A DNA stretch of 64,000 bases from positions 124,001-188,000 of the forward strand of contig NZ_VCPE01000003.1 in the NCBI RefSeq assembly GCF_005938105.1, in the 5' to 3' direction. The translations under genes were made by a program, and so were the position numbers. Each line of letters starts with the position of its first letter. The stretch's first letter is position 1. Source of the stretch: Brucella haematophila. Its GTDB lineage: Bacteria > Pseudomonadota > Alphaproteobacteria > Rhizobiales > Rhizobiaceae. Of this stretch, positions 3,253 through 58,550 are shown piece by piece. The notes beneath the pieces are model-generated. The model made no database searches and was not told the DNA's origin. It worked only from the letters and a program-made list of their open reading frames with translations.

Positions 3253-4413
3253 TTACCAAGCTGCTTTATAAATTGCCAATGCGTCGGGTTCACTCATCTC
3301 TCTTGGATTGTTCACCAGCAGCCTCGTTTGCTTCATGGCGTCACGGGCCATCGCGTGCAGGTGAGCTTCCTCGATACCGACCTCTCGCAATCGGGATGGC
3401 AGGCCCAGTTTCACACAAAGTGTAGAAAGTCGTTCGATGAATGCATTGCAGCGTTCTTCTTCATCCCACTCGGCCCTGATATCTGGAAAGGCATCGGCTG
3501 CAATCTCTGCATAATCCGAACATGCATCCTGAGCGTTGAACTGCATGACGTGCGGCAGTACCAGTGCGTTTGAAAGCCCGTGGGGAACGTGAAAGGTTCC
3601 GCCTATCGGATAAGCAAGCGCGTGCACGGCTGCGACCGGAGAATTCGCAAATGCCTGACCAGCCAGCATTGATCCCAGCAGCATAGCACCTCTTGCTTCC
3701 CTGTCTGTCCCGTTGAATACAGCCTTTTCAATATTCGCTCCCAAAAGCTGCAAAGCCTGTCTGGCGAGCATCTTTGACAACGGATTATTGTTCGCATTTA
3801 GCGATGTATAAGCTTCGATTGCATGCACCATAGCGTCGATGCCTGTAGCGGCAGTGATATGCGGCGGCAGACCCAGAGTGAGGTCAGCATCGAGAATTGC
3901 CACATCAGGCAGAATGATCGGCGACGAAACCCCGCGCTTTTCATTGTCGCCAACGGTGATGATGGAAACCGGTGTCACTTCCGACCCAGTGCCAGATGTT
4001 GTGGGCACCAGAACCAGCGGCAATCTCGGTCCTTTGGCATTACCCACCCCCCAGATTGTATCGACATCTTCGCCCGAGCCGCAAAGAAGAGCCACCACCT
4101 TTGCAACATCCAGCGAAGAGCCGCCGCCAAACCCGACGACGCTTGTAACTTTCCTGGCTCTCGCTTCCTTTGTCGCGGCCAGAACGGTTGCGAGCGATGG
4201 ATCGGCCTCGACGCGATCGAAAACCAATGTTTCAACACCGGAATCTGCCAAGGATTGAAGTGCGGGGTCACATAGGCCAAGTTGAAGCAGACCAGGATCG
4301 GTTACGAACAAGACCCGTTCACCCAGCCTGTCTTGCACCAGTGCGCCCATTTCGGCAGAGGCACCAAGGCGAAAGATGATCTGGGCAGTGGTATTGAACG
4401 TGAAAGGTGTCAT
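3253..4413 (-). CDS. iron-containing alcohol dehydrogenase
   Basis: A group III metal-dependent alcohol dehydrogenase of 386 aa, the normal length. The NAD-binding motif GGGSSLD is at about residues 96-102, followed by VPTTSGTGSEVT. The four metal ligands are visible: Asp193 and His197 in GIDAMVHAIEAYTS, His264 in HALAYP, and His278 in HVPHGLSNA. ATG 4413 was chosen because AAGGA lies about 8 nt upstream; a GTG 21 nt earlier is possible. It follows the GlpP gene after 80 nt and closes the glycerol-type operon, so it may reduce or oxidise a short polyol, aldehyde or dihydroxyacetone-like compound. The substrate is inferred from context only. Confidence 0.9.
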   Translation of the reverse strand: MTPFTFNTTAQIIFRLGASAEMGALVQDRLGERVLFVTDPGLLQLGLCDPALQSLADSGVETLVFDRVEADPSLATVLAATKEARARKVTSVVGFGGGSSLDVAKVVALLCGSGEDVDTIWGVGNAKGPRLPLVLVPTTSGTGSEVTPVSIITVGDNEKRGVSSPIILPDVAILDADLTLGLPPHITAATGIDAMVHAIEAYTSLNANNNPLSKMLARQALQLLGANIEKAVFNGTDREARGAMLLGSMLAGQAFANSPVAAVHALAYPIGGTFHVPHGLSNALVLPHVMQFNAQDACSDYAEIAADAFPDIRAEWDEEERCNAFIERLSTLCVKLGLPSRLREVGIEEAHLHAMARDAMKQTRLLVNNPREMSEPDALAIYKAAW

Positions 4414-4493
4414 GCGATTTTCCTTGGCAGTCACGCCAAAATTCCCGATCTGAGCGTCAGGTGCGAATGTTGAAAACAGCCTTCAGGCACAGG

Positions 4494-5069
4494 CTATCGC
4501 TTGTAATCCCAAAGCGACTTATTGCTTGAAGAAACGGCAATGGCACCCTGTTTCATTGCTGTAGCCACATCGGCCTCATTGCAAATAAAGCCAGAAGCCA
4601 CGATAGGCGGGAGGCGGCGCTTGTCCTCCGCAGACAGGTACCCCAGCATCGGCGATGGCATGATCTGCACCAGATTAGGGGCGCTCTGCGAGATTGCCTT
4701 CAGGCTGCGGGGCCATGTGGAACGGTCGGTCACAAAGACCTTCTGCATGGTCAGGAGGCCGCATTGCGCGGCCTTCTGGATTGTCGGAACGCGGGTCGAC
4801 AGCAGAACCGAAATGCCTATCTCGGCCAGGAACTCAATAGCTCCCTTATCCTGCGACAGGCCTTCACAACTGTCGATGTTCAGAACGATCAGCTTGTTGC
4901 TTTTCTTCAGCGCATTCAGCACTTCAGCCACATGGCGCAGGGCAATATTGGCAACGATGCCAACTTCCGCCTTGCTGTCCAGAAATGCCTGAAGATTATC
5001 CACGCCGTAGAGCGTTGCCATGACAGGCGCCCGCAAAAGCCGCTCACCGATCGTTCTGTCCAAAGTCAT
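4494..5069 (-). CDS. glpP: GlpP-type glycerol-3-phosphate responsive antiterminator
   Basis: A 191-aa protein of the GlpP family, which in Bacillus binds glycerol-3-phosphate and lets RNA polymerase read through a leader terminator of glp genes. Family features are visible in order: IVLNIDSCEGLSQDKGA near residues 60-76, EIGISVLLSTR, a VFVTDRS segment, PNLVQIMPSPMLG, and the C-terminal block PPIVASGFICNEADV with GAIAVSSSNKSLWD. The start at ATG 5069 leaves a 4-nt gap after the flavoprotein stop, indicating translational coupling. It lies inside an operon with glpD and a polyol kinase, which agrees with a glycerol-3-phosphate signal. An antiterminator target has not been shown. Confidence 0.85.
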   Translation of the reverse strand: MTLDRTIGERLLRAPVMATLYGVDNLQAFLDSKAEVGIVANIALRHVAEVLNALKKSNKLIVLNIDSCEGLSQDKGAIEFLAEIGISVLLSTRVPTIQKAAQCGLLTMQKVFVTDRSTWPRSLKAISQSAPNLVQIMPSPMLGYLSAEDKRRLPPIVASGFICNEADVATAMKQGAIAVSSSNKSLWDYKR

Positions 5070-5073
5070 TCCA

Positions 5074-6624
5074 TCATTTTCCGTCTCTTGGCATGTCGAG
5101 CGATAGTCCGAGCTTGCCGGGGTTAAGCAGATTGTCTGGATCAAGCGCCTTCTTCACTGTTTCCAGCAGCGGGAATGCTGATCCCAGAGCATCCTTCATG
5201 TAAGGCGCACGAAGCAGTCCGACACCATGATGATGGCTCAAGGCCGCACCATACTTGATTAGAACGGCATTGGCAGCATCCCATGCAGCGCGATACCATT
5301 CTGCGCGCTTTTCCACGTCCACATCACCACGCAGCGAGAAATAAAGGCAGGCGCCATCGACATAGGCATGCGACTGGTGCGCCGATCCCGCCAGTGTACC
5401 CGGCACGGCATTGATGGCAGCCACGACTTCATCGTAGATCGCGGGCAGATCGCGCCAGCATCCAGTCATTTCAAGCGTATCGGCAACAAAGCCGGGGCTG
5501 CGTTTGAAGCCCTCGGCGCTCTTGCCGGTCAGATAACGCGTATCGAGCCATTTCTCGAAAATCGTATCACCATCAAGCTTGTCACCGAGTTCAGCGCAAA
5601 CCTTTTCGCTGATCGCCATCACGGCATCGACCATTTCCTGCACGCCTTCGTCCGCAATCAGCAGCACGTTGCTTTCCGGCAGACCGAACTGCACGCCGCT
5701 TTCCAGCTCATCGTAGAGACGAAGCGCTGCCGGATTGGCTCCGCCCTGCATGATGCGGCGGCAGGCTTCTAAGCCGATAGCAAAGCTCTTGAACCCATAG
5801 GCGATTGCTCGCGCGTAATCCGGCAGGCGATGCAGTTTCAGGCGTGCCTTTACGATAATGCCGAGCGTGCCTTCCGAGCCGATAAAGATCTGCTGCAAAT
5901 CGGGCCCGATTGCTGCGCGGGCATAGTTTCCAACAGTCACCAGCGAACCATCGGCCAGCACGACTTCCATGCCGTAGACCATATCCTCAATCTTGCCGTA
6001 GCGCGTCGAAAGCTGACCTGCACCGCGGCAGGCAATCCAGCCACCCACCGTGCTGATACCGAATGAAGACGGCCAATGCCCCATGGTCATGCCAAAGTCG
6101 CGCTGGATCATTTCCTCGAAAATATCGCCGAACATGCCAGCTTCAACTTCAACGATCTGGCTGTCCGCATCGAAGCTGACAAAACGGTTGAGATTGCAGA
6201 CATCGAGCACGATACCGCCGCGCAGTGGCAGCGCCGCGCCAGTAACATTGGAGCGCCCGGCAGAAACCGTGACGGGAACCTTGGCTTCATGCGCAAGGCG
6301 CATAACGGCCTGAACCTGCTCCACCGTCGACACGCGAACGAATACGCCGTCAACCGTTGCGGGGTTTCCGCCCGTTTCCGCTACCATCGTGCGCGCCCAC
6401 CAGTCACGTGTGTTCACGACGAAATCTTCGCGCGAGGTCAGAACTTCATCTGCAACGCCCTGCAGCTTCTCAACGAGAGCTGCGTCCACAGAAACGGCGT
6501 TCTGAGCCAGATCGGCCTTGGTGCCGATTTCGTTGATGCTGCCAGCATAGTGCGGCTGTGTCGGGGCGCCGACGACATAATTTCCGCGATTGTAACCGCG
6601 CTTGATGGCTTCCTTGCTGATCAT
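5074..6624 (-). CDS. FAD-binding oxidase, alkyldihydroxyacetonephosphate-synthase-like
   Basis: A 516-aa flavoprotein of the PCMH/vanillyl-alcohol-oxidase superfamily. The FAD domain covers about residues 80-260 (VPVTVSAGRSNVTGAALPLR, then GISTVGGWIACRGAGQLSTR and YGKIEDMV); the latter block closely matches alkyl-DHAP synthase. The C-terminal cap shows HHHGVGLLRAPY and ends LDPDNLLNPGKLGL. Bacterial relatives oxidise glycolate, lactate or glycerol phosphates; true alkyl-DHAP synthase activity is unlikely without ether-lipid genes. The start lies 2 nt after the glpD stop. Together with GlpD it could handle a phosphorylated or ether-linked glycerol compound, but that is inference. Confidence 0.85.
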   Translation of the reverse strand: MISKEAIKRGYNRGNYVVGAPTQPHYAGSINEIGTKADLAQNAVSVDAALVEKLQGVADEVLTSREDFVVNTRDWWARTMVAETGGNPATVDGVFVRVSTVEQVQAVMRLAHEAKVPVTVSAGRSNVTGAALPLRGGIVLDVCNLNRFVSFDADSQIVEVEAGMFGDIFEEMIQRDFGMTMGHWPSSFGISTVGGWIACRGAGQLSTRYGKIEDMVYGMEVVLADGSLVTVGNYARAAIGPDLQQIFIGSEGTLGIIVKARLKLHRLPDYARAIAYGFKSFAIGLEACRRIMQGGANPAALRLYDELESGVQFGLPESNVLLIADEGVQEMVDAVMAISEKVCAELGDKLDGDTIFEKWLDTRYLTGKSAEGFKRSPGFVADTLEMTGCWRDLPAIYDEVVAAINAVPGTLAGSAHQSHAYVDGACLYFSLRGDVDVEKRAEWYRAAWDAANAVLIKYGAALSHHHGVGLLRAPYMKDALGSAFPLLETVKKALDPDNLLNPGKLGLSLDMPRDGK

Positions 6625-48243: not shown

Positions 48244-49467
48244 CTAGCTTGATGTGCATTCAGATTTCTTCGTTTTGAGCAAAGGTAAAAGCATCTGAGC
48301 AACAGAGAACTCGCCCGCCCTCGCCTTCTGCGTTAGAGCGCGCAAATAGCCTCCAGCAGAACTGATTTCACTTATGCGCTGGAGAATGCCTGCGATAGTT
48401 GCCGACACGCTTTCGATACCTATGACCTGACAAGCTTCATGATAGGCTGATTGGCTGATACCGAGAAAAGTAGAAACGACCCTCGAGGCTTCGATTAGAT
48501 CGCGCCATGAAACGATTTTGTTTGGTGCGTAATCAGCGATGTCCGGGCATGCTCTAAGAACTGTATCGATAGAAAGCGGGGGGGGTTGTTTGGTGTCGCT
48601 GGGCTTGATCGTGGTCTCTGATGAGAGTGCAAGGGGCTCCTTCAAAATCGTCGTTTTTATATTTTGAGTTTCAAAAAGGGATTCAGACTGGGATTCAATA
48701 AGATGCCGCTCAGAATGAGCGTGATTGGCGCTCATATCTTGAGTATTATCATTATGGATCAAAGTGTTATCTATTTCTGCACGTAATTCAGTTAAGTTTT
48801 CGAGAATGGTCGTTAGTTCTGGTGCGGAAGCACGACGCGGAATAGCGTCTACGATCGCACGAAAGAGCCTATGCGCTGTCGTCCAGAAGTCAGATAACGG
48901 CATTTCAGCAAGCGCGGCATCGATCATCTGAGCAAGGTCCCTGCGTTGCAATGTAATCTGTTCGCGCGTGCGTTTAAGTAGCACCGCGTCGGCCTGAACC
49001 TGTTTGGCTGCTTGGGCGATATCATCTGAGCGTTCGAGAAGTGGAGCGAATGAAAAGCCGAAGGCTTCTTCTACCTGCCCTGCTTCGTCTTTATAAGCAT
49101 AGCGTTTGCCATTAGGGCTATCGCGGCGCGCAATGAGCCCACTTTCGATGAGCACTGCGATATGGCGGCGCAGAGTGGATTCGGGCATTCCATGCGCGCG
49201 CAATGAGAGCTGTCGATTGGATGGGAAAACAACAAGACCGTTCTTGGCACTGATTTCGTTATCGGGAAGAAACGATAATAGCGAACTCATCACGGCCAGG
49301 CAGCGGTCGTTGATCCCGAACACTGACTTGGCGATGCAAAGCTCTTTATAGATCGCCCAACGGTTGACCGACTTTCCATCCGATTGTGTTGATGATGAAA
49401 GCTTGAATTGGCCAAGCGTCATCTTTCGCCCACGAAATGTGGACGTTATTGACTCCAGAATTTGCAT
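48244..49467 (-). CDS. repC: plasmid/chromid replication initiator RepC
   Basis: A 407-aa RepC replication initiator, the usual size (400-430 aa). The N-terminal helix-turn-helix region is around MTLGQFKLSS, KELCIAKSVFGINDRCLAVM and STLRRHIAVLIESGLIARRD. The middle part (about residues 170-290) is rich in N/S/Q and low-complexity, and overlaps the AT-rich part of the gene. The C-terminal helix-rich domain (ACPDIADYAPNKIVSWRDLI and ISEISSAGGYLRALTQKARA) is conserved in the family. The start at ATG 49467 keeps the GRKMTLGQFK stretch seen at this place in other RepC proteins. It is the third gene of repABC and is separated from repB by 211 nt encoding an antisense RNA. Confidence 0.95.
   Translation of the reverse strand: MQILESITSTFRGRKMTLGQFKLSSSTQSDGKSVNRWAIYKELCIAKSVFGINDRCLAVMSSLLSFLPDNEISAKNGLVVFPSNRQLSLRAHGMPESTLRRHIAVLIESGLIARRDSPNGKRYAYKDEAGQVEEAFGFSFAPLLERSDDIAQAAKQVQADAVLLKRTREQITLQRRDLAQMIDAALAEMPLSDFWTTAHRLFRAIVDAIPRRASAPELTTILENLTELRAEIDNTLIHNDNTQDMSANHAHSERHLIESQSESLFETQNIKTTILKEPLALSSETTIKPSDTKQPPPLSIDTVLRACPDIADYAPNKIVSWRDLIEASRVVSTFLGISQSAYHEACQVIGIESVSATIAGILQRISEISSAGGYLRALTQKARAGEFSVAQMLLPLLKTKKSECTSS
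48640..48810. other. AT-rich tract inside repC, candidate oriV
   Basis: This part of repC is clearly more AT-rich than the surroundings (stretches such as TTTTTATATTTTGAGTTTC and GAGTATTATCATTATGG). In studied repABC replicons the origin lies in an AT-rich segment within repC and is bound by RepC. The location is by analogy; no iterons or DnaA boxes were identified here. Confidence 0.5.
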
Positions 49468-49526
49468 TTCCTCTTACCTTTTTTCAGGCAAAAGAAATCC
49501 ACCCGCCATAAAGACGCTTATGACTC

Positions 49527-49555
49527 TTGACACTGATTCATGGAAATGCGATTCT
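49527..49555 (+). promoter_or_regulatory. promoter of the repABC antisense RNA
   Basis: TTGACA (49527-49532) is a perfect -35 box; 17 nt later GATTCT (49550-49555) is a weak -10. It reads rightward, against the repABC operon, and would start transcription at about 49562. The terminator lies about 50 nt further on, giving a transcript of the usual ctRNA length. Confidence 0.7.
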
Positions 49556-49561
49556 CTGAGT

Positions 49562-49614
49562 GCTTAAATCTGAGGAAGGCTTCCATGCGGCAACGTGTTG
49601 GGGGCCTTTTTCTT
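49562..49614 (+). ncRNA. counter-transcribed RNA (incA-type) between repB and repC
   Basis: A predicted antisense RNA of about 53 nt, lying in the repB-repC gap on the opposite strand to the operon. It is bounded by a promoter at 49527-49555 and a Rho-independent terminator at 49576-49616. In known repABC replicons a 50-60-nt ctRNA here blocks repC expression through the leader structure and sets copy number and incompatibility. The transcript ends are estimates. Confidence 0.75.
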
Positions 49615-49616
49615 TT
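49576..49616 (+). terminator. Rho-independent terminator of the antisense RNA
   Basis: AAGGCTTCC (49576-49584) pairs with GGGGGCCTT (49600-49608), a 9-bp stem including two G-U pairs, with a 15-nt loop, followed by a T-rich run (TTTTTCTTTT). The T-run exists only on the rightward strand, matching the antisense RNA. Confidence 0.85.
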
Positions 49617-49678
49617 GCGGTTCGTTCTCCTGGTTTACGTATCCGTATGTTGTGGCTCTGAAGCCGGAGCTTCATCAG

Positions 49679-50719
49679 CTATTTGGATGTCTCGCTGGCC
49701 TTATACTCTGCATAGAGTTCTTCAAGACGCGACTGGATAAAGTTGGCAAATTGCGGAGCCGCTTTGTCATTGAAGGTGAACTGTACATTCTTACCAGCTC
49801 GTTTGATTGTTACGGGTTGAATACCCTCACCAAGAACAGGTGAGTGACCGGCATCCCGTTGAGGCTTATCTTTGGATGTCGATGCTTTGAGCTTATCGAA
49901 TACGAATTGAAATCGATCATCTGAAGACAAGGTGGCAAAGTCGACGCTTTGGATGGCGTCATTTGCAATGGCTTCGCTGACAACTGTCAAAAGGCCAACA
50001 AACTCTTCCCAGCGTGTGCGCCCGATGGACGGTGCACGGCCAATCTTGCGGACGATTTCTTCGGGTATAGACTTGATGATCGTAATCATCTTCGACAGGA
50101 CGGCTTTATCAATGCCTGTCGACTGATAAAGCGTCTCACGAGAATAGCCCTGCCCTTCCAAAGTGTAGGCAAAAAATGCCTTTTCGATGAAAGAGAGGTT
50201 GGATCGTGTGTTGTTTTCCTGCCCCTGGTGAATGACCAGCTCTTCATCCGTGAGCTGCTTGACGACTGCTCTGACCTTGATGCCAAGAGCTTTGATGGCA
50301 GCGACACGTCTGTGGCCATAGGCTATTTGAAATCGATCAGAATTGTCTGGATGAGGACGCACGAGAATTGGCACAAGCTGTCCGCTCTCGCGGATTTGCT
50401 CGATGAGCTTTGTCTGGTCTTCGTCGTCAAATCCCAGTCGGTCAGAGACGAATGAACTGTCGATCAGATTGGGATCAAGCTCGATAATCGTCTGACCATT
50501 GGAAAGCTGACGCTCGATTTCATCAGCGCGAGCAGAGCGTTCATTGATCTTTTCGAGAGATTGCGAAATCGCGCCGAGCGCTGCCGGGCGATTTGCACGG
50601 TCTCGTTCCATACCGGCAAGCGGCCGCGCCTGTTCGACGGACGAGCTTGCAGAATGGTTCTCTGCTTTTTGCGAGGGCTCTGATTGATCGGAAAAGTCGA
50701 AAATGTTCTTTCGTGCCAT
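49679..50719 (-). CDS. repB: partition protein RepB (ParB family)
   Basis: A 346-aa ParB-like centromere-binding protein. The N-terminal arm is followed by the ParB/Srx nuclease-fold motif around SGQLVPILVRPHP, DRFQIAYGHRRVAAIKALG, and the DNA-binding HTH region near YSRETLYQSTGIDKAVLSKM. The C-terminal dimerisation part ends ELYAEYKASETSK. It would bind parS sites and stimulate the RepA ATPase to segregate the replicon. The start ATG is 2 nt after the repA stop, so the two genes are coupled. A weak parS-like sequence (49976-49991) lies inside. Confidence 0.95.
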   Translation of the reverse strand: MARKNIFDFSDQSEPSQKAENHSASSSVEQARPLAGMERDRANRPAALGAISQSLEKINERSARADEIERQLSNGQTIIELDPNLIDSSFVSDRLGFDDEDQTKLIEQIRESGQLVPILVRPHPDNSDRFQIAYGHRRVAAIKALGIKVRAVVKQLTDEELVIHQGQENNTRSNLSFIEKAFFAYTLEGQGYSRETLYQSTGIDKAVLSKMITIIKSIPEEIVRKIGRAPSIGRTRWEEFVGLLTVVSEAIANDAIQSVDFATLSSDDRFQFVFDKLKASTSKDKPQRDAGHSPVLGEGIQPVTIKRAGKNVQFTFNDKAAPQFANFIQSRLEELYAEYKASETSK

Positions 50720-50721
50720 GA

Positions 50722-51927
50722 TTAGCTACGCCCCCAAGTCTGGCGAATGAGGTCTTCAATCTCGGCGTTGACAGATGTCAACGATTCCAATGCGCGGTCA
50801 TAAGTGCCGCGCGAGAAGGCAGAGCGATCAACCTCGTAAAGTGTCTGCTTCGTCAGACCTGCATCGGAAATGGCGGTCGACTTCAGCATTGGCGTTTCCA
50901 GCACACGATTGCCAAATATTGAGCGCATGAAACCAGCCATCTGGTTCTGCGGCGCATCGTTTGGTTCATAGCGGGTGATCAGGTAGCGCATCCAGTCATA
51001 TTGTGTATTGCCACCTGCTCGCTCAACCACCGCCAGCAGGTCCGATGTCATGTGCAGGAACTGGTTCATCGACATGACATCGAGCATCTGTGGGTGAACA
51101 GTGATCAACACGGATGTGGCGGCGCATAAAGCAGACAGTGTCAGAAAGCCCATCTGCGGAGGGCAGTCGATCACAACCACATCATAGAGATCTTCAACGA
51201 CTGCGAGACAGCTTCCGATGCGCGAGAAGAACATTGCTTCGTTCTTCTGCTCTGCCAGAACCTTTGGCGTTTCATGTTCAAATTCCATCAGCTCGAGATT
51301 GCCCGGAATGACATGCAGACCGGGTGTGTAGGTAGATCTGACAATATCGGTAATCTCGCGCCGTTCCGCATCATAGCGAATGGCGCCATAGAGCGTATCA
51401 TTGACCCGCACGTCGAGTTCAGGCTGATGGCCGAACATCGCAGACAGAGAGGCCTGGGGGTCGAGATCAATTGCCAGAACGCGATAACCACGCAGCGCCA
51501 GATATTGGGCGAGGTGGGCTGACGTGGTGGTTTTTGCTGAGCCGCCTTTAAAGTTCATCACCGAAATGATCTGCAACTTCTCGCCATTGCGGCGATGACG
51601 GATATATTTACCGTGGGTTTTGGGCGAGTTGTCGTCCAGCAATTGCCGTATGGCATGAATGTCTTGAATGGAGTACATCCGCCGACCATTGCTTTGCGGA
51701 GCAGGTCCGTGCCCTTCCGAAACGATCTGACGGAGGTACCCTTCCGCGACGCCGATGAAGGATGCCGCTTCAGCAGGTGTAAAGGAGCGGATCGACTTCT
51801 GCGCTGTTGGCGGAAAAATGCGCATTTGATGCGCCTGAAGTCGCTTCGACAGCTCTTCAGCGTCGGCTTCAATCAAGGACTGAAGGCTGCTATGAGGTTG
51901 TGGAGATGCTGTCGGGTTTTGATGCAT
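50722..51927 (-). CDS. repA: partition ATPase RepA (ParA family)
   Basis: A 401-aa ParA-type ATPase. The N-terminal DNA-binding domain (about residues 45-100: SFTPAEAASFIGVAEGYLRQ) is followed by the deviant Walker A FKGGSAKTT at 126-134 and the Walker B region VVIDCPPQMGFLTLSAL. It moves RepB-parS complexes and, with RepB, represses the operon at the promoter. A 12-bp inverted repeat lies 14-52 nt upstream of its ATG and a parS site lies within its 3' end. It is the first gene of repABC. Confidence 0.95.
   Translation of the reverse strand: MHQNPTASPQPHSSLQSLIEADAEELSKRLQAHQMRIFPPTAQKSIRSFTPAEAASFIGVAEGYLRQIVSEGHGPAPQSNGRRMYSIQDIHAIRQLLDDNSPKTHGKYIRHRRNGEKLQIISVMNFKGGSAKTTTSAHLAQYLALRGYRVLAIDLDPQASLSAMFGHQPELDVRVNDTLYGAIRYDAERREITDIVRSTYTPGLHVIPGNLELMEFEHETPKVLAEQKNEAMFFSRIGSCLAVVEDLYDVVVIDCPPQMGFLTLSALCAATSVLITVHPQMLDVMSMNQFLHMTSDLLAVVERAGGNTQYDWMRYLITRYEPNDAPQNQMAGFMRSIFGNRVLETPMLKSTAISDAGLTKQTLYEVDRSAFSRGTYDRALESLTSVNAEIEDLIRQTWGRS
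50767..50782. promoter_or_regulatory. parS site inside repA
   Basis: GTTGACAGATGTCAAC is a 16-bp dyad matching the repABC parS consensus GTT-nnC-nGC-nGnn-AAC at all but one fixed position. It lies in the 3' end of repA, 48 nt from the repB start. RepB would bind it for partition. Confidence 0.8.
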
Positions 51928-51940
51928 TGGTTCGTCCTTA

Positions 51941-51979
51941 TCAGCGCATATTCAGTAAAACATAACAAATATGCGCTGA
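51941..51979. promoter_or_regulatory. repA operator, 12-bp inverted repeat
   Basis: TCAGCGCATATT (51941-51952) and AATATGCGCTGA (51968-51979) are perfect inverted copies with a 15-nt spacer. They lie 14-52 nt upstream of the repA ATG, where ParA-type proteins with an N-terminal HTH autoregulate. It fits a RepA or RepA/RepB binding site over the promoter. Confidence 0.75.
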
Positions 51980-52126
51980 CGAAGATGCCCCGATTCTGTC
52001 TTCACCGCAATTTGTTTTTAGTTAATGAATAGTTAACGTCAAGCAAAGCAAAGAACGAGCCTGACAGAAATTATAGCGTTTCAAAATTAGCAGCTTCCAA
52101 GATACTCTAGGAAAGCTTTTCTGTTT

Positions 52127-52142
52127 ATTGACATCTGTCAAC
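52127..52142. promoter_or_regulatory. parS site upstream of repA
   Basis: ATTGACATCTGTCAAC is the reverse complement of the parS site in repA with one end mismatch (ATT instead of GTT). It lies 200 nt upstream of repA, between repA and the GreA-like gene. Confidence 0.75.
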
Positions 52143-52229
52143 ATCGCGCGAATGCGCTGACCTGTTTGTATTACGCAGATTGGAGCCGACTAACATGCCG
52201 AAGGGCGGGCCAGATGAGGCTGCGCTCCG

Positions 52230-52712
52230 TCAGGAAATGGCCAGAACCTCAATCTCCTGATCTCCGAGTGAAGCCATATCACCAACTGCTTTGCCCATAA
52301 GCAATCGTGCCAGCGGCGAAACGAATGATATGGTGCCGCGTTTCGGGTCTGCTTCATCCTCGCCGACAATGCGATAGGATTGAGCAGGACGACCGTCTCT
52401 ACTAAAGGATATAACGCAGCCGAAACCAATATTGGTTGGAGATAGAGGCGCAGGCGTTAGCTGAGCGGAATGAAGACGCGCAGCATAATAGCGAAGATCG
52501 CGTAGAGGGTGCGCTGTTTGACGCCGCCGCTCGGAAATGTCCTCGATGGCACTTGCCGCTTCAAATGCTACCCGCGCTTTCGCAAGCTCTTGCTGCAGAA
52601 GTCGCAACCCCTCCTCCGTTACCAGATTGGGGTGGAGAGAAATTTCGCGATCCGGCAGGATTGTTTCCGAAGCTGCTTCCGCGCTCTCTTCCTTGGCGAA
52701 CGCAACGCTCAT
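52230..52712 (-). CDS. GreA/GreB-family transcription elongation factor-like protein
   Basis: A 160-aa protein with the Gre-type layout: an N-terminal helical hairpin (TEEGLRLLQQELAKARVAFE and EDISERRRQTAHPLRDLRYY) and a C-terminal FKBP-like domain (SYRIVGEDEADPKRGTISFV, PLARLLMGKAVGD). The acidic tip GDLKEN/GDxxEN that classical GreA uses for cleavage is absent; the hairpin instead reads HPLRDLRYYAARL, so its activity may differ. The start has AAGGAG just upstream. It lies between repA and a serine recombinase, likely a fellow traveller on the chromid. Confidence 0.8.
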   Translation of the reverse strand: MSVAFAKEESAEAASETILPDREISLHPNLVTEEGLRLLQQELAKARVAFEAASAIEDISERRRQTAHPLRDLRYYAARLHSAQLTPAPLSPTNIGFGCVISFSRDGRPAQSYRIVGEDEADPKRGTISFVSPLARLLMGKAVGDMASLGDQEIEVLAIS

Positions 52713-52804
52713 AGCAAAGCTCCTTTTTTTGGCTCGCGCAATTCTATCCGATTCTCAAGGGGGTGGGGTCTGTTATCAAATGATGCCGAGATAATTTAGA
52801 ATGG

Positions 52805-52827
52805 CGGGAAGACGCCACTTCTTCCCG
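52805..52827 (-). terminator. hairpin downstream of the recombinase gene
   Basis: CGGGAAGA (52805-52812) and TCTTCCCG (52820-52827) form an 8-bp stem with a 7-nt loop, beyond the recombinase stop (53046) and before the GreA-like gene start. No strong T-run; a weak terminator is possible. The surrounding 52713-53045 region holds no recognised gene apart from the parS site at its end. Confidence 0.5.
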
Positions 52828-53034
52828 GTGACGTTAAACGGCGTCAAGAGTGATCACTGATCGATCTATAAGGCAGGGGATTACGGGTCCGTTTGTCATT
52901 CATCAAGTTCAGTCGGCGCGACGAACAATTCGGATGTCGCGATTTTGTAAGCACAAAGACTGGGACAAGCGTGGGCTTATAGCGAGAGATGCTAACTCGC
53001 ACGTTAAGGCGCGTCTCATTGTTTCGGAAAGCTC

Positions 53035-53050
53035 GTTGACAGCTGTCAAT
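53035..53050. promoter_or_regulatory. parS site at the recombinase stop
   Basis: GTTGACAGCTGTCAAT matches the repABC parS consensus with only the last base changed (T for C) and overlaps the stop codon of the recombinase gene. It is the best match of the three in the core GC. Confidence 0.78.
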
Positions 53051-53960: not shown

Positions 53961-54824
53961 CGCTACTATCCGACTCCGCGCAGTTTTGTACCAATTGAGG
54001 CTACATCATAAAAGGTTACTTTGTATACGGTTTTCAATAATGGCTTTCGAGCCATACAGCGCGGATATGATGAGTTTTATTTGCTTCCCCACTTGGATCG
54101 GCCTGCCATTCATTCTGAGCCAATCTGAAGAGAAAGGACAGTTGCGTGGTCAACATGACGTTCAATCAGGTGCCTGCAAAGTGCCACTGATGCGCTGGTG
54201 AAAAGCGAGGAACGAAAATCGTAGATATGCCCTCATTAGGGGTCTCTTTGAGCTTCTAGCTAGGTGCAATTAATTTATTGAAAATGTGAACTAAATTTTC
54301 CCAAATGAAACCTAAGGCGAGCTTCAGTTTAGCTCGGGCGATTGTTTATCTTTCGGTGTTTTGGGAGAGAAGATACAATTCGAATTGGCCGAGCGAAGAA
54401 GCTTCAAGACCGTTTCCGACAAATAGAATCATATTTGATTTGCAGTCAAAAATCTACAGTCGGACTTGCATGATGGTTCTTAGCGTTACGAGCCTGCATC
54501 TTCGACGCGCGATATCTTCGAACAGGTTTCACAATATCATGATCCCCGTTTGGTTAACTCCGTACGGGGGTACGCGTATTCCGCTACCAAGAAAGGCGTA
54601 CCACTGACGTTGGGAGTCTTCGATTAGGTTAGCCAACATTGCACATTGAACATGTTTCTCTGCCGGTACGCGTAAATTACAAGATGGATATTGAAAGCAG
54701 ATTTTTCTGAGCTCCGGCTTCTCCTGTTCCAGAAGACATGTGGGCTCTAGAATTCAAGTCGGACTGAACACACAGGCGTCCTGCATTCTTGCGCACGTTC
54801 ACCGGCTTATTGGTAGGGGGACGT
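53961..54824. other. long intergenic region before the second autotransporter
   Basis: About 860 nt between the recombinase start and the autotransporter. Base composition is patchy, with AT-rich parts at about 54260-54340. Several short open frames exist, but none has protein-like content. A compact palindrome CGTACgggGTACG lies near 54566. It contains the promoter of the autotransporter and perhaps unassigned small RNA. Confidence 0.5.
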
Positions 54825-57800
54825 GTGTTGGTTGCGTATCTCATTAGATCAAATAGAGAGTTGGCCTCCTCTAACGGCGAGCAAAGACGCAGGTCTGTTT
54901 TCGCGGGTCCATTCTTCAACCGGGCTATGGTGCGCCTCCTGTCAGTCGGGGCTTGTATCATCGTGATGACACCTGCCAACGCACAGACCGTATGTACAGC
55001 GTCGCCATGCACGGGTTCTACGACTATCGACGCGAACTCCGCCGATTATTTTTCCGATACATCCCGCCCTAACTGGTCATTTCAGGATACGAGCACGCTC
55101 AACGCGACTGCGACCAATGCGATCAGTGGCGGCATGCAGGTCTTTTATGACTCCAGCGCTCTGAACGGCACGGCGATAAATGCGATCAGCGGAGGGTCGC
55201 AATATTTCAATGGCAACAGCAGTCTCAACGCCTCGGCAACATTTGTGGTTGGGGGCGGTGTGCAGAGCTTCTATGACACCAGCGCGCTGAATGCATCGGC
55301 TGCAAATGCGGTTAATGGCGGCGAGCAGTATTTCAACGCCAGTAGCTCACTCAACGTAACAGCCGCTGGAGGTCTCAGCGGCGGGCAACAGTACTTTTAT
55401 AATACGAGCACATTGAATGTGGATTCCGTCAGCGGATTAAACGGTGGCACGCAGATTTTCTACGACACCAGCGCACTGAACGCCTCGGAAGCAAATGCCG
55501 TCGCAGGCGGGTCGCAATATTTCAACGGTAGTAGTCGCCTCAATGCAACGTCGTCCAACGCGGTCAGCGGCGGATCGCAGAGCTTCTATGCCAACAGCGT
55601 TATGACGTTGACAGCAGTCAACGCCGTTAGCGGCGGTGCGCAGTACTTCAATGGCGACAGCATATTGAACGCCGAAGCTAGCGGCGCGATCGGCGGCGGC
55701 ACGCAATATTTCTATAATTCCAGTGTCCTGAATGCTTCGACCGCAAACGCTGTCAATGGTGGCACGCAGGATTTCCATGACAGTAGCATTTTCAATGTTT
55801 CTGCAGCCAGCGGCCTTAGTGGCGGCACGCAGACTTTTCACGGCAACAGCACGCTCAATGTGTTGGCAAATGATGCACTGACGGCAAATGCGGGCGTTAA
55901 CTTTGATAATCAGGCGGGTGGCATTGGCGGGACGATAAAGCTCAATGGATTCAGTACAATCGTCGGAGCCATCAATAGTGTTGGCGCCGGGGCTGGTGTT
56001 ATGGAAAATGGTGCCGCGACGAGCAGTGTTCTGACCGTTGACGGCTCATCTGTCGGCCCGTCGATGTTCTCCGGTATAATCCAGGATGGCGGCAGCGGTC
56101 GGCTGTCGCTGGCGCTTAATAGCGGCACGTTGACACTCAGTGGAGTGAATAGTTTCACAGGCGGCACCACGATAACGGGCGGTGTCTTGCAGGTGTCGAA
56201 CGATGATAATCTCGGCGATCCATCAGGGGGGGTGATTTTCAATGGTGGGACACTGGCAACGACCGCAAGTTTTCAGACCGCCCGGTCAATTTCATTGGCG
56301 CAGGCAGGCATACTGGATGTCGCAGATAATACCGATCTCGTCGTGAGCGGTGTCATCTCAGGGCCGGGCGATCTTGTGAAAACGGGTACAGGTGTGCTCC
56401 AACTCACAAACGCTGCCAATAGCTATCGCAACACAATTGTTGGGGCCGGTCGTCTCATCGGCAATTCTGAAACTATCGCAGGCAACATTGCAAATGCAGG
56501 TGTCGTCGTTTTCGAACAGACAGCAGATGGTAGCTTTGCTGGCAATATTGCGGGCGCTGGTGGAGCGGCAGGCACGATAATCAAGGACGGGGTTGGCAGC
56601 CTTATCCTCAATGGCACATCGGGTCTCAACTGGATTGTGCAACAAGGTAATCTGACTTCCGGCGCTGAGCGCTTCTCAGGCGACGTCTCAATTGCGAGCG
56701 CTGCCTCATTGACATTCGATCAATCGACCGGCGCGCAGTTCGATGGTGCAGTGACCGGCGCGGGGACCTTCCTCAAAACTGGAACCGGAACGCTCGCTTA
56801 TAATGGTGAAAGCGCATCATTCTCAGGAGTGACTGACATTGCCGCTGGCGGCTTGATTGTTGGATCGGACATTAGCCATAGCAATGCCGTGCTCGGAGGC
56901 TCGTTTATTGTAGGAGACGGGGCTCTGATCGGCGGGCACGGTACCATCGGTTCGGGCGTTGGATCAACGGTCGCGGTTCTAACCGGAGGAACACTTTCGG
57001 CTGGAAATTCGATTGGCACATTGATGATCAATGGCGACCTGACGCTTGAAAGCGGTTCGACCTATGCTGTCGAAATTGCAGGCGCTGGTGCGAGTGATCT
57101 CACGCGCGTTTCCGGATCAACAACGATTTTGGGCGGAGCCGTCAGTGTAACCGCCCTTGATCCCGCAACGAGTTATCGGAATGGGCAAACCTATACGATC
57201 CTTACATCGGATGGCGGTATAAGCGGCACATTTCAGGATACGGTTTCAAAATCCGCCTTTATAATCGCAAATGAGGCCTATGACCTCAACAGCGTGAAGT
57301 TGACGATTGCTGTTAAAGATGGCGGGGATACCGATCCTACGTCGGGCACGCCACCCGCAATCTTCGAAACTGTTTCGCAAACGAAAAACCAGGTAGCGAC
57401 GGCAAGGGCGCTGGATACGCTCCAGCAGTCGGGACAGTCCCTTGAGCTTTACAACAAACTGTTGATGCTGAGCCCCGATGAGGCGCGCTCCGCCTTCAAT
57501 CTTCTGTCTGGCGAGGCCTATGCGTCGACGAAAGCGGCACTCATTGAAGGCAGCTCGGCTATTCGTGATGCTATGAATAGTCGTTTGCGAACGACCGAGG
57601 GCTTTGAGCTACCGTCATCGATGACCGTCCTTTCCTATGGGCCAGAGAAGAGCTCCAATGCTGCCGCACCCGGCGCTTTTGCCACAATCACTCCAGCGCC
57701 TGCCGCGCAAGGGTATGATGTCTGGATTCAGGGCTATGGCAATTGGGCTTCAATCGATGGAAACGGTAACGCAGCCCGGCTCGACTACAATACTGGTGGC

Positions 57801-58550
57801 TTCGTAGCGGGCGTAGATGGCACTGTGTTCGATAACTGGCGCCTTGGATTATTAGCCGGCTATAGTAGAACAACGTTCAATGTGGATGGCCGCGCATCAT
57901 CCGGACAAAGCGACAATTATACACTCGGAGCCTATGCCGGAACGTCCTGGAAGCTGAATAATGGCAATGCCGTCGCGTTGCGGACGGGGCTTGCTTATAC
58001 CTGGCATGAGATCGAGCTGGACCGATCAGCCTATTTTCCGGGCTTCTCAGATAGCTTGAACAGCGATTATCATGCCGGTACGTTTCAGGCCTTTGGTGAG
58101 CTTGCCTATCAGTGGGGCAGGGATGATGCGCCGCTGGAAGCGTTTGCCAATCTGGCTTATGTCCACCTTCACACGGATGGCTTCAATGAAGCAGGACGGA
58201 CAGCCGCGCGGCTTTCCGTCAATAGCGATACGATGGACACGGCATTCACCACCATCGGCTTGCGCGCTTCAAGGCGCTTTATGCTGGGCAATGTATCTGC
58301 AATTGCGCATGGGTCCATAGGTTGGCGTCATGCCTATGGTGATATCGACACAAGTTCCACAAACAGCTTCCTTGGTTCTTCTGCCTTTACAGTTTATGGC
58401 GCGCCTATCGCCAAGGATGCAGCTCTTGTCGAGGCAGGTCTGAACTTCAATCTCTCTCCGCGCTCAACACTTGGCATTAATTACACGGGCCAAATCGGTT
58501 CCCATGCCTATCAGCAGGGTGTGAATGCCGTGTTCAGGGTGAGGTTTTGA
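54825..58550 (+). CDS. repeat-rich autotransporter (type Va)
   Basis: An autotransporter of about 1241 aa. A long N-terminal region with a Sec signal ending MTPANAQ (about residue 54) precedes the passenger. The passenger begins with twelve 21-residue repeats (about residues 100-353) built around GG-x-Q-x-F and a SxLN motif, then autotransporter-associated strand repeats (LTLSGVNSFTGGTTITGGVL). A C-terminal beta-barrel (about 960-1241) ends NAVFRVRF with a terminal Phe. GTG 54825 was chosen because AGGGGG lies just before it; TTG 54828 and ATG 54927 are alternatives. Likely surface adhesin or biofilm factor; no catalytic site is seen. A hybrid kinase and response regulator lie downstream. Confidence 0.9.
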   Translation: MLVAYLIRSNRELASSNGEQRRRSVFAGPFFNRAMVRLLSVGACIIVMTPANAQTVCTASPCTGSTTIDANSADYFSDTSRPNWSFQDTSTLNATATNAISGGMQVFYDSSALNGTAINAISGGSQYFNGNSSLNASATFVVGGGVQSFYDTSALNASAANAVNGGEQYFNASSSLNVTAAGGLSGGQQYFYNTSTLNVDSVSGLNGGTQIFYDTSALNASEANAVAGGSQYFNGSSRLNATSSNAVSGGSQSFYANSVMTLTAVNAVSGGAQYFNGDSILNAEASGAIGGGTQYFYNSSVLNASTANAVNGGTQDFHDSSIFNVSAASGLSGGTQTFHGNSTLNVLANDALTANAGVNFDNQAGGIGGTIKLNGFSTIVGAINSVGAGAGVMENGAATSSVLTVDGSSVGPSMFSGIIQDGGSGRLSLALNSGTLTLSGVNSFTGGTTITGGVLQVSNDDNLGDPSGGVIFNGGTLATTASFQTARSISLAQAGILDVADNTDLVVSGVISGPGDLVKTGTGVLQLTNAANSYRNTIVGAGRLIGNSETIAGNIANAGVVVFEQTADGSFAGNIAGAGGAAGTIIKDGVGSLILNGTSGLNWIVQQGNLTSGAERFSGDVSIASAASLTFDQSTGAQFDGAVTGAGTFLKTGTGTLAYNGESASFSGVTDIAAGGLIVGSDISHSNAVLGGSFIVGDGALIGGHGTIGSGVGSTVAVLTGGTLSAGNSIGTLMINGDLTLESGSTYAVEIAGAGASDLTRVSGSTTILGGAVSVTALDPATSYRNGQTYTILTSDGGISGTFQDTVSKSAFIIANEAYDLNSVKLTIAVKDGGDTDPTSGTPPAIFETVSQTKNQVATARALDTLQQSGQSLELYNKLLMLSPDEARSAFNLLSGEAYASTKAALIEGSSAIRDAMNSRLRTTEGFELPSSMTVLSYGPEKSSNAAAPGAFATITPAPAAQGYDVWIQGYGNWASIDGNGNAARLDYNTGGFVAGVDGTVFDNWRLGLLAGYSRTTFNVDGRASSGQSDNYTLGAYAGTSWKLNNGNAVALRTGLAYTWHEIELDRSAYFPGFSDSLNSDYHAGTFQAFGELAYQWGRDDAPLEAFANLAYVHLHTDGFNEAGRTAARLSVNSDTMDTAFTTIGLRASRRFMLGNVSAIAHGSIGWRHAYGDIDTSSTNSFLGSSAFTVYGAPIAKDAALVEAGLNFNLSPRSTLGINYTGQIGSHAYQQGVNAVFRVRF
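55128..55883 (+). repeat. twelve tandem 63-bp coding repeats
   Basis: Twelve consecutive 21-residue units, each beginning GG-x-Q and containing an aromatic pair (YF or FY), an S/T-x-LN segment and a NAV/NAI/GLS end, span exactly 756 bp. A thirteenth, degenerate unit without GG precedes them. Each unit probably forms one turn of a beta-helix. Unit length is uniform while bases differ, so selection rather than recent duplication keeps the pattern. Confidence 0.85.

What the first reader, a model, noticed from the sequence alone, without database searches (positions are those of the whole stretch)
50767..53050. Three parS-type centromere sites around repA and a serine recombinase
Sixteen-bp dyads GTTGACAGATGTCAAC (50767), its near reverse complement (52127) and GTTGACAGCTGTCAAT (53035) occur within 2.3 kb. 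They match the known repABC parS consensus and sit in repA, upstream of repA and on the stop codon of a recombinase. Having a site fused to a recombinase stop is unusual and could couple partition with dimer resolution. A fourth, weaker copy (49976) has three mismatches.
Basis: partly seen in the sequence, partly recalled or inferred. Interest (0 to 1): 0.8.

Follow-up and report, generated by a model that had tools for sequence, protein, structure and literature searches.

The report
Multi-site plasmid centromere beside a recombinase
The short palindromes are very probably the DNA handles by which a large Ochrobactrum-type replicon is pulled into daughter cells; one handle overlaps the end of a recombinase gene of a kind that usually travels with this replicon type, but the overlap looks incidental and the recombinase looks partly worn down.

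Summary
In detail: the three palindromes are at the stated places, the weak one in repB (49976) is there, and one was missed, inside an autotransporter gene (55607). In the five genomes found to carry this replicon, every exact core match (16 of 16 places) lies in this repABC locus. A 16-mer identical to a sister locus's site and one base from the 53035 site is bound by RepB of plasmid pAMI4 (PMC9040568), so parS is the best reading.

The recombinase is no chance neighbour: its serine-recombinase family has rep genes within about 10 kb in 24 of 29 loci, against 0 of 20 control resolvases. It is 56% identical to the recombinase near repABC on p42d, probably the published RinQ.

The "fusion" is not a conserved coupling device. 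None of 27 other family members has a parS-like dyad near its end, and two sister replicons keep the parS without a family recombinase at E <= 1e-40. In this lineage 24 of 59 family-invariant catalytic-half positions are changed, against at most 3 in any of 28 relatives, so active dimer resolution is doubtful.

Verdict: a real multi-parS repABC centromere (known kind) with an unusual, possibly demoted recombinase.

The parts
48244..49467 (-). repC, replication initiator of the repABC operon
   Evidence: NCBIfam NF040974 RepABC_RepC 442 bits; Pfam RP-C
49465..49532 (-). S-element at the repC leader
   Evidence: Rfam RF00490, 59.7 bits
49573..49618 (+). antisense ctRNA between repB and repC
   Evidence: Rfam RF00489, 57.7 bits
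49679..50719 (-). repB, ParB-type centromere-binding protein
   Evidence: TIGR03454 362 bits; residues 166-215 invariant at 47 of 50 positions in five orthologues
49976..49991 (.). weak parS-like site inside repB (3 mismatches)
   Evidence: a counterpart at the same repB position is seen in L009, L011 and L012 but was not listed for L010; G142 and G136 also have a copy of their own palindrome inside repB (L159, L160)
50722..51927 (-). repA, ParA-type partition ATPase
   Evidence: TIGR03453 651 bits
50767..50782 (.). parS in the 3' part of repA, GTTGACAGATGTCAAC
   Evidence: 16 of 16 identical in five orthologous loci
51941..51979 (.). inverted repeat TCAGCGCATATT / AATATGCGCTGA just upstream of repA; candidate RepA operator (inferred)
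52022..52036 (.). CtrA-box-like TTAA-N7-TTAA upstream of repA
   Evidence: only match in the window; 0.31 expected, 25 of 100 shuffles have at least one; conserved in five loci
52127..52142 (.). parS upstream of repA; a single half-operator ATGCGCTGAC lies beside it at 52152-52161
52230..52712 (-). GreA-like transcription elongation factor gene
   Evidence: NF004973 241 bits
53035..53050 (.). parS over the recombinase stop codon (TGA at 53046-53048, minus strand)
   Evidence: same overlap in L009 and L012; same site without a recombinase in L011 and L010
53046..53960 (-). serine recombinase, 304 aa, of the repABC-linked family; altered catalytic half
   Evidence: Pfam PF00239; 56% identity to the p42d recombinase
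53984..54034 (.). conserved block just upstream of the recombinase start; candidate recombination or operator site (inferred)
   Evidence: alignment of 12 upstream regions; not seen in the alignment of 23 more distant members
54789..58550 (+). autotransporter with 21-residue passenger repeats (start codon uncertain)
   Evidence: Pfam PF03797 226 bits; repeats
55607..55622 (.). parS-like site inside the autotransporter ORF, GTTGACAGCAGTCAAC
   Evidence: identical in L009 and L012, with further changes in L011 and in L194 of G141

Best explanation
This is the partition and replication locus of a large repABC replicon. Its RepB protein recognises one 16-bp palindrome, present here as a set: a weak copy in repB, one at the 3' end of repA, one upstream of repA, one at the stop of the neighbouring recombinase and one inside the next gene, an autotransporter. 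RepB would load on these sites, spread and form one partition complex of about 5.6 kb or more, which RepA separates at division; the two repA-proximal copies probably also tune operon expression. The recombinase belongs to a serine-recombinase family (RinQ-like) that accompanies repABC operons and presumably acts, or once acted, in plasmid dimer or cointegrate resolution. The overlap of parS with its stop codon is a compact by-product: parS holds TGA in one frame on each strand, and the site is kept where the recombinase is absent. Shown: sites, clustering, conservation, family linkage, loss of family-invariant residues. Inferred: RepB binding, spreading, RepA movement, recombinase activity.
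For: Genome-wide specificity: exact cores occur in 3, 3, 3, 3 and 4 places in the five genomes found to carry this replicon, all 16 at this locus. The pAMI4 parS GTTGACAGCTGTCAAC, shown by EMSA to bind its RepB, is identical to the L010 site at 729 and one base from the 53035 site (PMC9040568, abstract, Results and Discussion read). The repA site is 16 of 16 identical in five loci, although repA third positions agree only 60-71% in nine of ten pairs. The site at 53035 gives a 20 of 20 identical match to L011, with no other blastn match between it and the next aligned blocks on either side. In the autotransporter, repeat 9 of 12 departs from the usual SxLN (SVMTLT) exactly where the palindrome sits. 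Family linkage is 24 of 29 against 0 of 20 (Fisher p = 2e-9), and three of the genome's five repABC loci have a family member within 5 kb of a rep gene. GC skew changes sign at about 40 kb, some 8 kb from repC.
Against: No binding was measured. The autotransporter site is only modestly more conserved than its gene: 1.5% of 16-mers are as conserved in three genes, 3.8% in four. The repB site is degenerate in the window and not seen in L010. Four of the five sites lie in or touch coding DNA, so some conservation is protein constraint. The linkage samples are not phylogenetically independent, and the controls were picked by me from the listed weaker matches.
Confidence: 0.8

Rival explanations
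1. The parS at the recombinase stop is a functional coupling device: RepB on that site gates recombinase expression or delivers the resolvase to the partition complex, so that dimers are resolved before segregation.
For: The overlap is kept in three of three replicons that carry the recombinase (window, L009, L012), between proteins down to 72% identical. The family is linked to repABC. The recombinase lies between two parS-like sites, 53035 and 55607, so it would sit inside a RepB complex.
Against: 0 of 27 other family members have a parS-like dyad within 150 bp of the end. Two sister replicons keep the site, with no family recombinase in the genome at E <= 1e-40. The catalytic half is altered.
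Confidence: 0.15
2. The recombinase is a demoted enzyme: it has lost or reduced strand-exchange activity but is kept as a DNA-binding regulator or architectural protein at the locus.
For: Of 59 columns in the first half that are identical in 28 of 28 relatives, 24 are changed in the window protein (21 in L009, 19 in L012); in a leave-one-out control no relative differs at more than 3. By alignment to gamma-delta resolvase Q14, S39 and R119 become P, A and H. dN is higher in the catalytic than in the C-terminal half in 3 of 3 pairs of this lineage, against 0 of 21 control pairs. Bit score to gamma-delta resolvase 1gdt is 47.5 against 85.2 for the p42d protein. Whole-gene dN/dS of 0.10-0.14 shows it is still constrained.
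Against: The residues aligned to gamma-delta R8, S10, R45, D67, R68, R71, E124 and R125 are all present (their roles are recalled). The C-terminal half has also diverged: 8 of 39 invariant columns, above all relatives (most 6 of 45), so the loss is not confined to the catalytic half. By dN/dS the controls are mixed: of 18 defined pairs the catalytic half is lower in 13, equal in 1 and higher in 4. For the closest pair the dN difference is small (0.053 against 0.047). The upstream block is kept, and L012 keeps S39.
Confidence: 0.35
3. The palindromes are binding sites of another dimeric regulator and only happen to cluster near repABC.
For: They overlap coding and upstream DNA, and TTGACA resembles a -35 box (recalled).
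Against: Identity or near-identity with a RepB-bound parS, absence of exact copies elsewhere in five genomes, and a matching layout with a different palindrome in the next relatives G142 and G136.
Confidence: 0.04

Closest known systems
repABC replicons of Rhizobiales with several parS sites (PMC9040568; abstract, Results and Discussion read)
   Same: Complete repABC operon with ctRNA; 16-bp parS near repA; parS copies inside coding sequences are reported there too (cas genes in Rhodobacterales)
   Different: Here the set spans repB, the 3' end of repA, the upstream region, a recombinase stop codon and an autotransporter repeat; no parS on a recombinase stop was described in the sections read
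Paracoccus aminophilus pAMI4 parS / 3parS
   Same: parS GTTGACAGCTGTCAAC is identical to the L010 site and one base from the 53035 site
   Different: The pAMI4 extra sites lie in a non-coding locus 11.5 kb downstream of repC; here they lie on the repA side and in genes
RinQ, site-specific recombinase of Rhizobium etli p42d (Quintero 2002; paper not held, known only through citing passages in PMC10194956)
   Same: Serine recombinase of the invertase/resolvase type near repABC; the p42d recombinase at 4408-5325 is 56% identical over 298 residues; that it is RinQ is inferred from position and family
   Different: The window protein has an altered catalytic half and its gene ends in a parS
Recombinase next to repABC in pNGR234a (y4cG by recall)
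   Same: 57% identity, same family, repABC within 10 kb
   Different: Catalytic motifs of the usual family type; its 3' end was not among those tested for a parS

Membership tests
repABC partition/replication locus | repA, repB and repC in one operon order | tested here: met
   TIGR03453, TIGR03454 and NF040974 above cut-off in order on the minus strand
repABC partition/replication locus | ctRNA antisense gene between repB and repC | tested here: met
   RF00489 at 49573-49618 and RF00490 at 49465-49532
repABC partition/replication locus | 16-bp parS palindrome fitting GTTNNCNGCNGNNAAC | tested here: inconclusive
   One of five sites fits exactly (55607); 50767 and 53035 have one mismatch, 52127 and 49976 are not matched at one mismatch; the core is specific to the locus
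repABC partition/replication locus | RepB binds the palindromes; incompatibility and stabilisation in cis | not testable with these tools
   Needs gel shift and plasmid stability assays
repABC-linked serine recombinase (RinQ-like) | Resolvase N-terminal domain plus the family's long C-terminal part | tested here: met
   PF00239; full-length alignment with 28 relatives
repABC-linked serine recombinase (RinQ-like) | Location beside repABC | tested here: met
   Gene 1.1 kb from repA; 24 of 29 other members, 0 of 20 controls
repABC-linked serine recombinase (RinQ-like) | Family-invariant catalytic-half motifs (GSGASR, GMFS, LER) | tested here: not met
   Altered in window, L009 and L012; core catalytic residues kept
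repABC-linked serine recombinase (RinQ-like) | Site-specific recombination or dimer resolution activity | not testable with these tools
   Needs a recombination assay
   Found only in this orthologue group (3 of 3); 0 of 27 others

The most novel reading that the evidence does not exclude
A repABC-linked serine recombinase in this lineage has been demoted from an enzyme to a constrained DNA-binding component of the RepB centromere, held between two parS sites, one of which supplies its own stop codon.
Probability: 0.12. Interest if true: 0.65.

Novelty: new variant of a known kind. Interest (0 to 1): 0.4.

Why it matters
If right, it gives a clean natural comparison for how centromere sites are kept through gene turnover: five sister replicons keep the same sites while the recombinase, its flanks and, in one pair, most of repC change. 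It also points to a widespread repABC companion recombinase whose role in dimer resolution or incompatibility can be tested, with one lineage in which the enzyme looks compromised. The parS overlap itself is probably a curiosity.

Tried and rejected

Rejected: the overlap as a family-wide design and as dependent on the recombinase.

Rejected: extreme RepA conservation as special to this replicon. RepA of another repABC replicon type in five of these genomes (L014, L016, L018, L023, L097) is also 98.2-99.7% identical, although over less synonymous change. PMC2783167 (passages read) also finds RepA the most conserved of the three proteins.

Led nowhere: no recombination site could be proven. A conserved block upstream of the gene was seen in the closer group, but the alignment of 23 more distant members gave no clear shared block. 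The RinQ paper is not held. Structure prediction was not run, because a fold would not decide activity. PMC11767727 and PMC13342612 (passages) gave nothing used here.

Rows dropped and limits: three broken or partial family members (L123, L124, L125) were left out of the alignment. In one search columns before about 40 cannot count as invariant, because L122 starts there. In one search two of the 29 loci gave no 3' end to test (L123, L124), and the filter (7 of 8 pairs) also misses the L012 site (6 of 8). In one search three of 21 control pairs have undefined dN/dS; the dN statement uses all 21, from 7 sequences, so pairs are not independent. The 29 family loci are all listed matches with E <= 1.2e-29 besides the window's own; the 20 controls are part of the weaker matches listed there.
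Full report
What was checked. A fifth copy, GTTGACAGCAGTCAAC at 55607, lies in the autotransporter ORF. At up to three mismatches the window holds 15 strand-matches against 0.80 expected, and no shuffle of 100 reaches that. The stricter core TTGACANMTGTCAA is decisive. In the 5.5 Mb genome all 3 exact places are here; of 5 further places at one mismatch 2 are here and 3 elsewhere.

What the locus is. On the minus strand run a gre-like gene, repA, repB, the ctRNA region and repC, the protein genes all above a family cut-off. GC skew in 2-kb bins is negative up to 40 kb (but for 34-36 kb) and positive from 40 to 62 kb, as expected near an origin. The genome has five repABC loci with RepB above the cut-off. 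Palindromes seen beside three of the other four differ from the window's (GTTCTCAGCTGAGAAC on C14; GTTAGCCGCGGCTAAC on C26; GTTGTCG..CGACAAC on C13); none was detected beside the fourth, on C3. That fits compatible partition systems in one cell.

Relatives. A RepB search of named genomes gave 48 loci; four are orthologues at 86-95% identity, the rest are below 45%. In 35 genomes of the genus, five including this one carry the orthologue. L009, L010, L011 and L012 are these four relatives, which match G145, G141, G148 and G124 by identity and, where compared, by position. All five keep the palindrome core at the 3' end of repA and upstream of repA, and at the corresponding place upstream of the gre-like gene (in L010 that gene is matched only over residues 93-158 at 53%). 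All five also keep it, with one or two changes, inside the autotransporter (in G141 this lies on another contig, L194). In the five genomes together the exact core occurs in 16 places, all at this locus. One-mismatch places also occur elsewhere: 3 in the window's genome and several in each of the others. In the two next relatives, with RepB at 43-44% identity, a different palindrome repeats upstream of repA (4 and 2 copies) and once inside repB, the same layout with another letter set. The RepB region 166-215, where the DNA-binding helices are expected (recalled), is invariant at 47 of 50 positions across the five, against 86 of 131 in the C-terminal part.

Link to proven parS. Czarnecki et al. 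(PMC9040568; abstract, Results and Discussion read) show that RepB of pAMI4 binds GTTGACAGCTGTCAAC. L010 carries exactly this 16-mer; the 53035 site differs by one base. The same paper reports parS sites within coding sequences in Rhodobacterales and upstream of repA in Rhizobiales. So a multi-copy, partly intragenic parS set is of a known kind.

Regulatory surroundings. Between the upstream parS and repA lie a TTAA-N7-TTAA box (52022-52036; 0.31 expected in the window, so not striking by number alone) and an inverted repeat just before repA, both nearly invariant in five loci. A single copy of the repeat half lies beside the parS at 52127. The reading as CtrA box and RepA operator is inference.

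The recombinase. It is a 304-residue serine recombinase. Its family was sampled in 121 genomes of the bacterial family. Of 29 family loci fetched besides the window's, 24 have repB or repC in the fetched stretch, up to about 10 kb on each side. The five without are L102, L103, L104, L108 and L123; L103 and L123 are whole short contigs (10.4 and 6.8 kb) and in L102 the gene lies 3.8 kb from a contig start. Of 20 control loci, picked from the weaker matches in the same list, none has rep genes nearby (Fisher p = 2e-9; loci are not phylogenetically independent). Among plasmid records, 578 hold a family member at E <= 1e-60. Of seven sampled from the 60 listed, five have rep genes within 10 kb, two do not, and pNGR234a, chosen on purpose, makes 6 of 8. 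The p42d recombinase, 56% identical, lies about 4.4 kb beyond repC across the start of the record. [quoted passage not shown] that this is the same gene is inferred. The original paper was not available.

The overlap with the stop codon. In the window, L009 and L012 the palindrome lies over the end of AAT and the stop TGA. In 27 other family members tested no TT..AA dyad lies within 150 bp of the 3' end; three have a GC-rich dyad there (the L012 site scores 6 of 8 pairs and is also missed by that filter). In L011 the palindrome gives a 20 of 20 match without the recombinase, and in L010 the 50 bases before it do not encode the recombinase end. Neither genome holds a family member at E <= 1e-40. 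The site therefore does not depend on the recombinase. Since parS contains TGA, an ORF running into it in the right frame ends there.

State of the enzyme. In an alignment with 28 relatives (some near-identical to each other) 98 columns are identical in all 28, 59 in the first 150 columns and 39 after. The window protein is changed at 24 of the 59 and 8 of the 39; L009 at 21 and 6; L012 at 19 and 7; 22 of the window's 32 changes are shared by both. In a leave-one-out control no relative differs at more than 3 columns in the first part; in the second part the most is 6 of 45 (L108). The changes include the GSGASR loop, the GMFS segment, with a two-residue gap in the window only, and LER to LEH. 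Aligned to gamma-delta resolvase, Q14, S39 and R119 are replaced in the window, while R8, S10, R45, D67, R68, R71, E124 and R125 are kept (residue roles recalled). Scores to that structure fall to 47.5 bits from 85.2 for the p42d protein. dN in the catalytic half exceeds dN in the C-terminal half in 3 of 3 pairs of this lineage and in 0 of 21 control pairs; by dN/dS the controls are less uniform (lower in 13, equal in 1, higher in 4 of 18 defined pairs). Whole-gene dN/dS in this lineage is 0.10-0.14. So the gene is kept, but it has been released from part of its usual constraint, more in the catalytic half than in the rest. Whether it still recombines cannot be told here. A block upstream of the gene is conserved in the closer group and may be its recombination or operator site; it was not found in the more distant group.

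Literature on the overlap. Searches for repABC with parS, resolvase and centromere, serine recombinase, multimer resolution and resolvase listed no title on a parS at a recombinase stop; only listings and the passages and sections named here were read, so this is weak evidence of absence.

Verdict. A genuine, conserved multi-parS centromere of a repABC replicon, ordinary in kind; a recombinase family truly linked to repABC; no support for the overlap as a coupling device; and an unexpected sign that this recombinase is partly demoted.

Noticed in passing
window 50722-51927: RepA is 98.8-99.8% identical among the five replicons (ten pairs) while synonymous change is large (dN/dS 0.001-0.005 in the six pairs scored); RepB and RepC change far more.
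   Followed up: partly
L009 11252-12469 and window 48244-49467: Against L009 the DNA aligns at 88% through the locus and about 420 bases into repC, yet RepC as a whole is only 53% identical: a likely exchange of most of repC.
   Followed up: no
G000:C54:141614 and counterparts in four other genomes: A near-parS TTGACATATGTCAT occurs once in each of the five genomes on another contig; possibly an unrelated regulator site.
   Followed up: no
L013 8754-15505: A Brucella rhizosphaerae contig carries a repABC set followed by a second repAB set with another palindrome.
   Followed up: no
L156, L185, L187: An RHE_PE00001 family protein gene lies close to the recombinase, on the other strand, in 3 of the 7 plasmid stretches that carry annotation (L184 has none).
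   Followed up: no
window 55090-55850: The autotransporter passenger holds 12 repeats of 21 residues (found by a GGxQ pattern); repeat 9 alone has MT where the others have LN or FN, and the palindrome lies there.
   Followed up: yes
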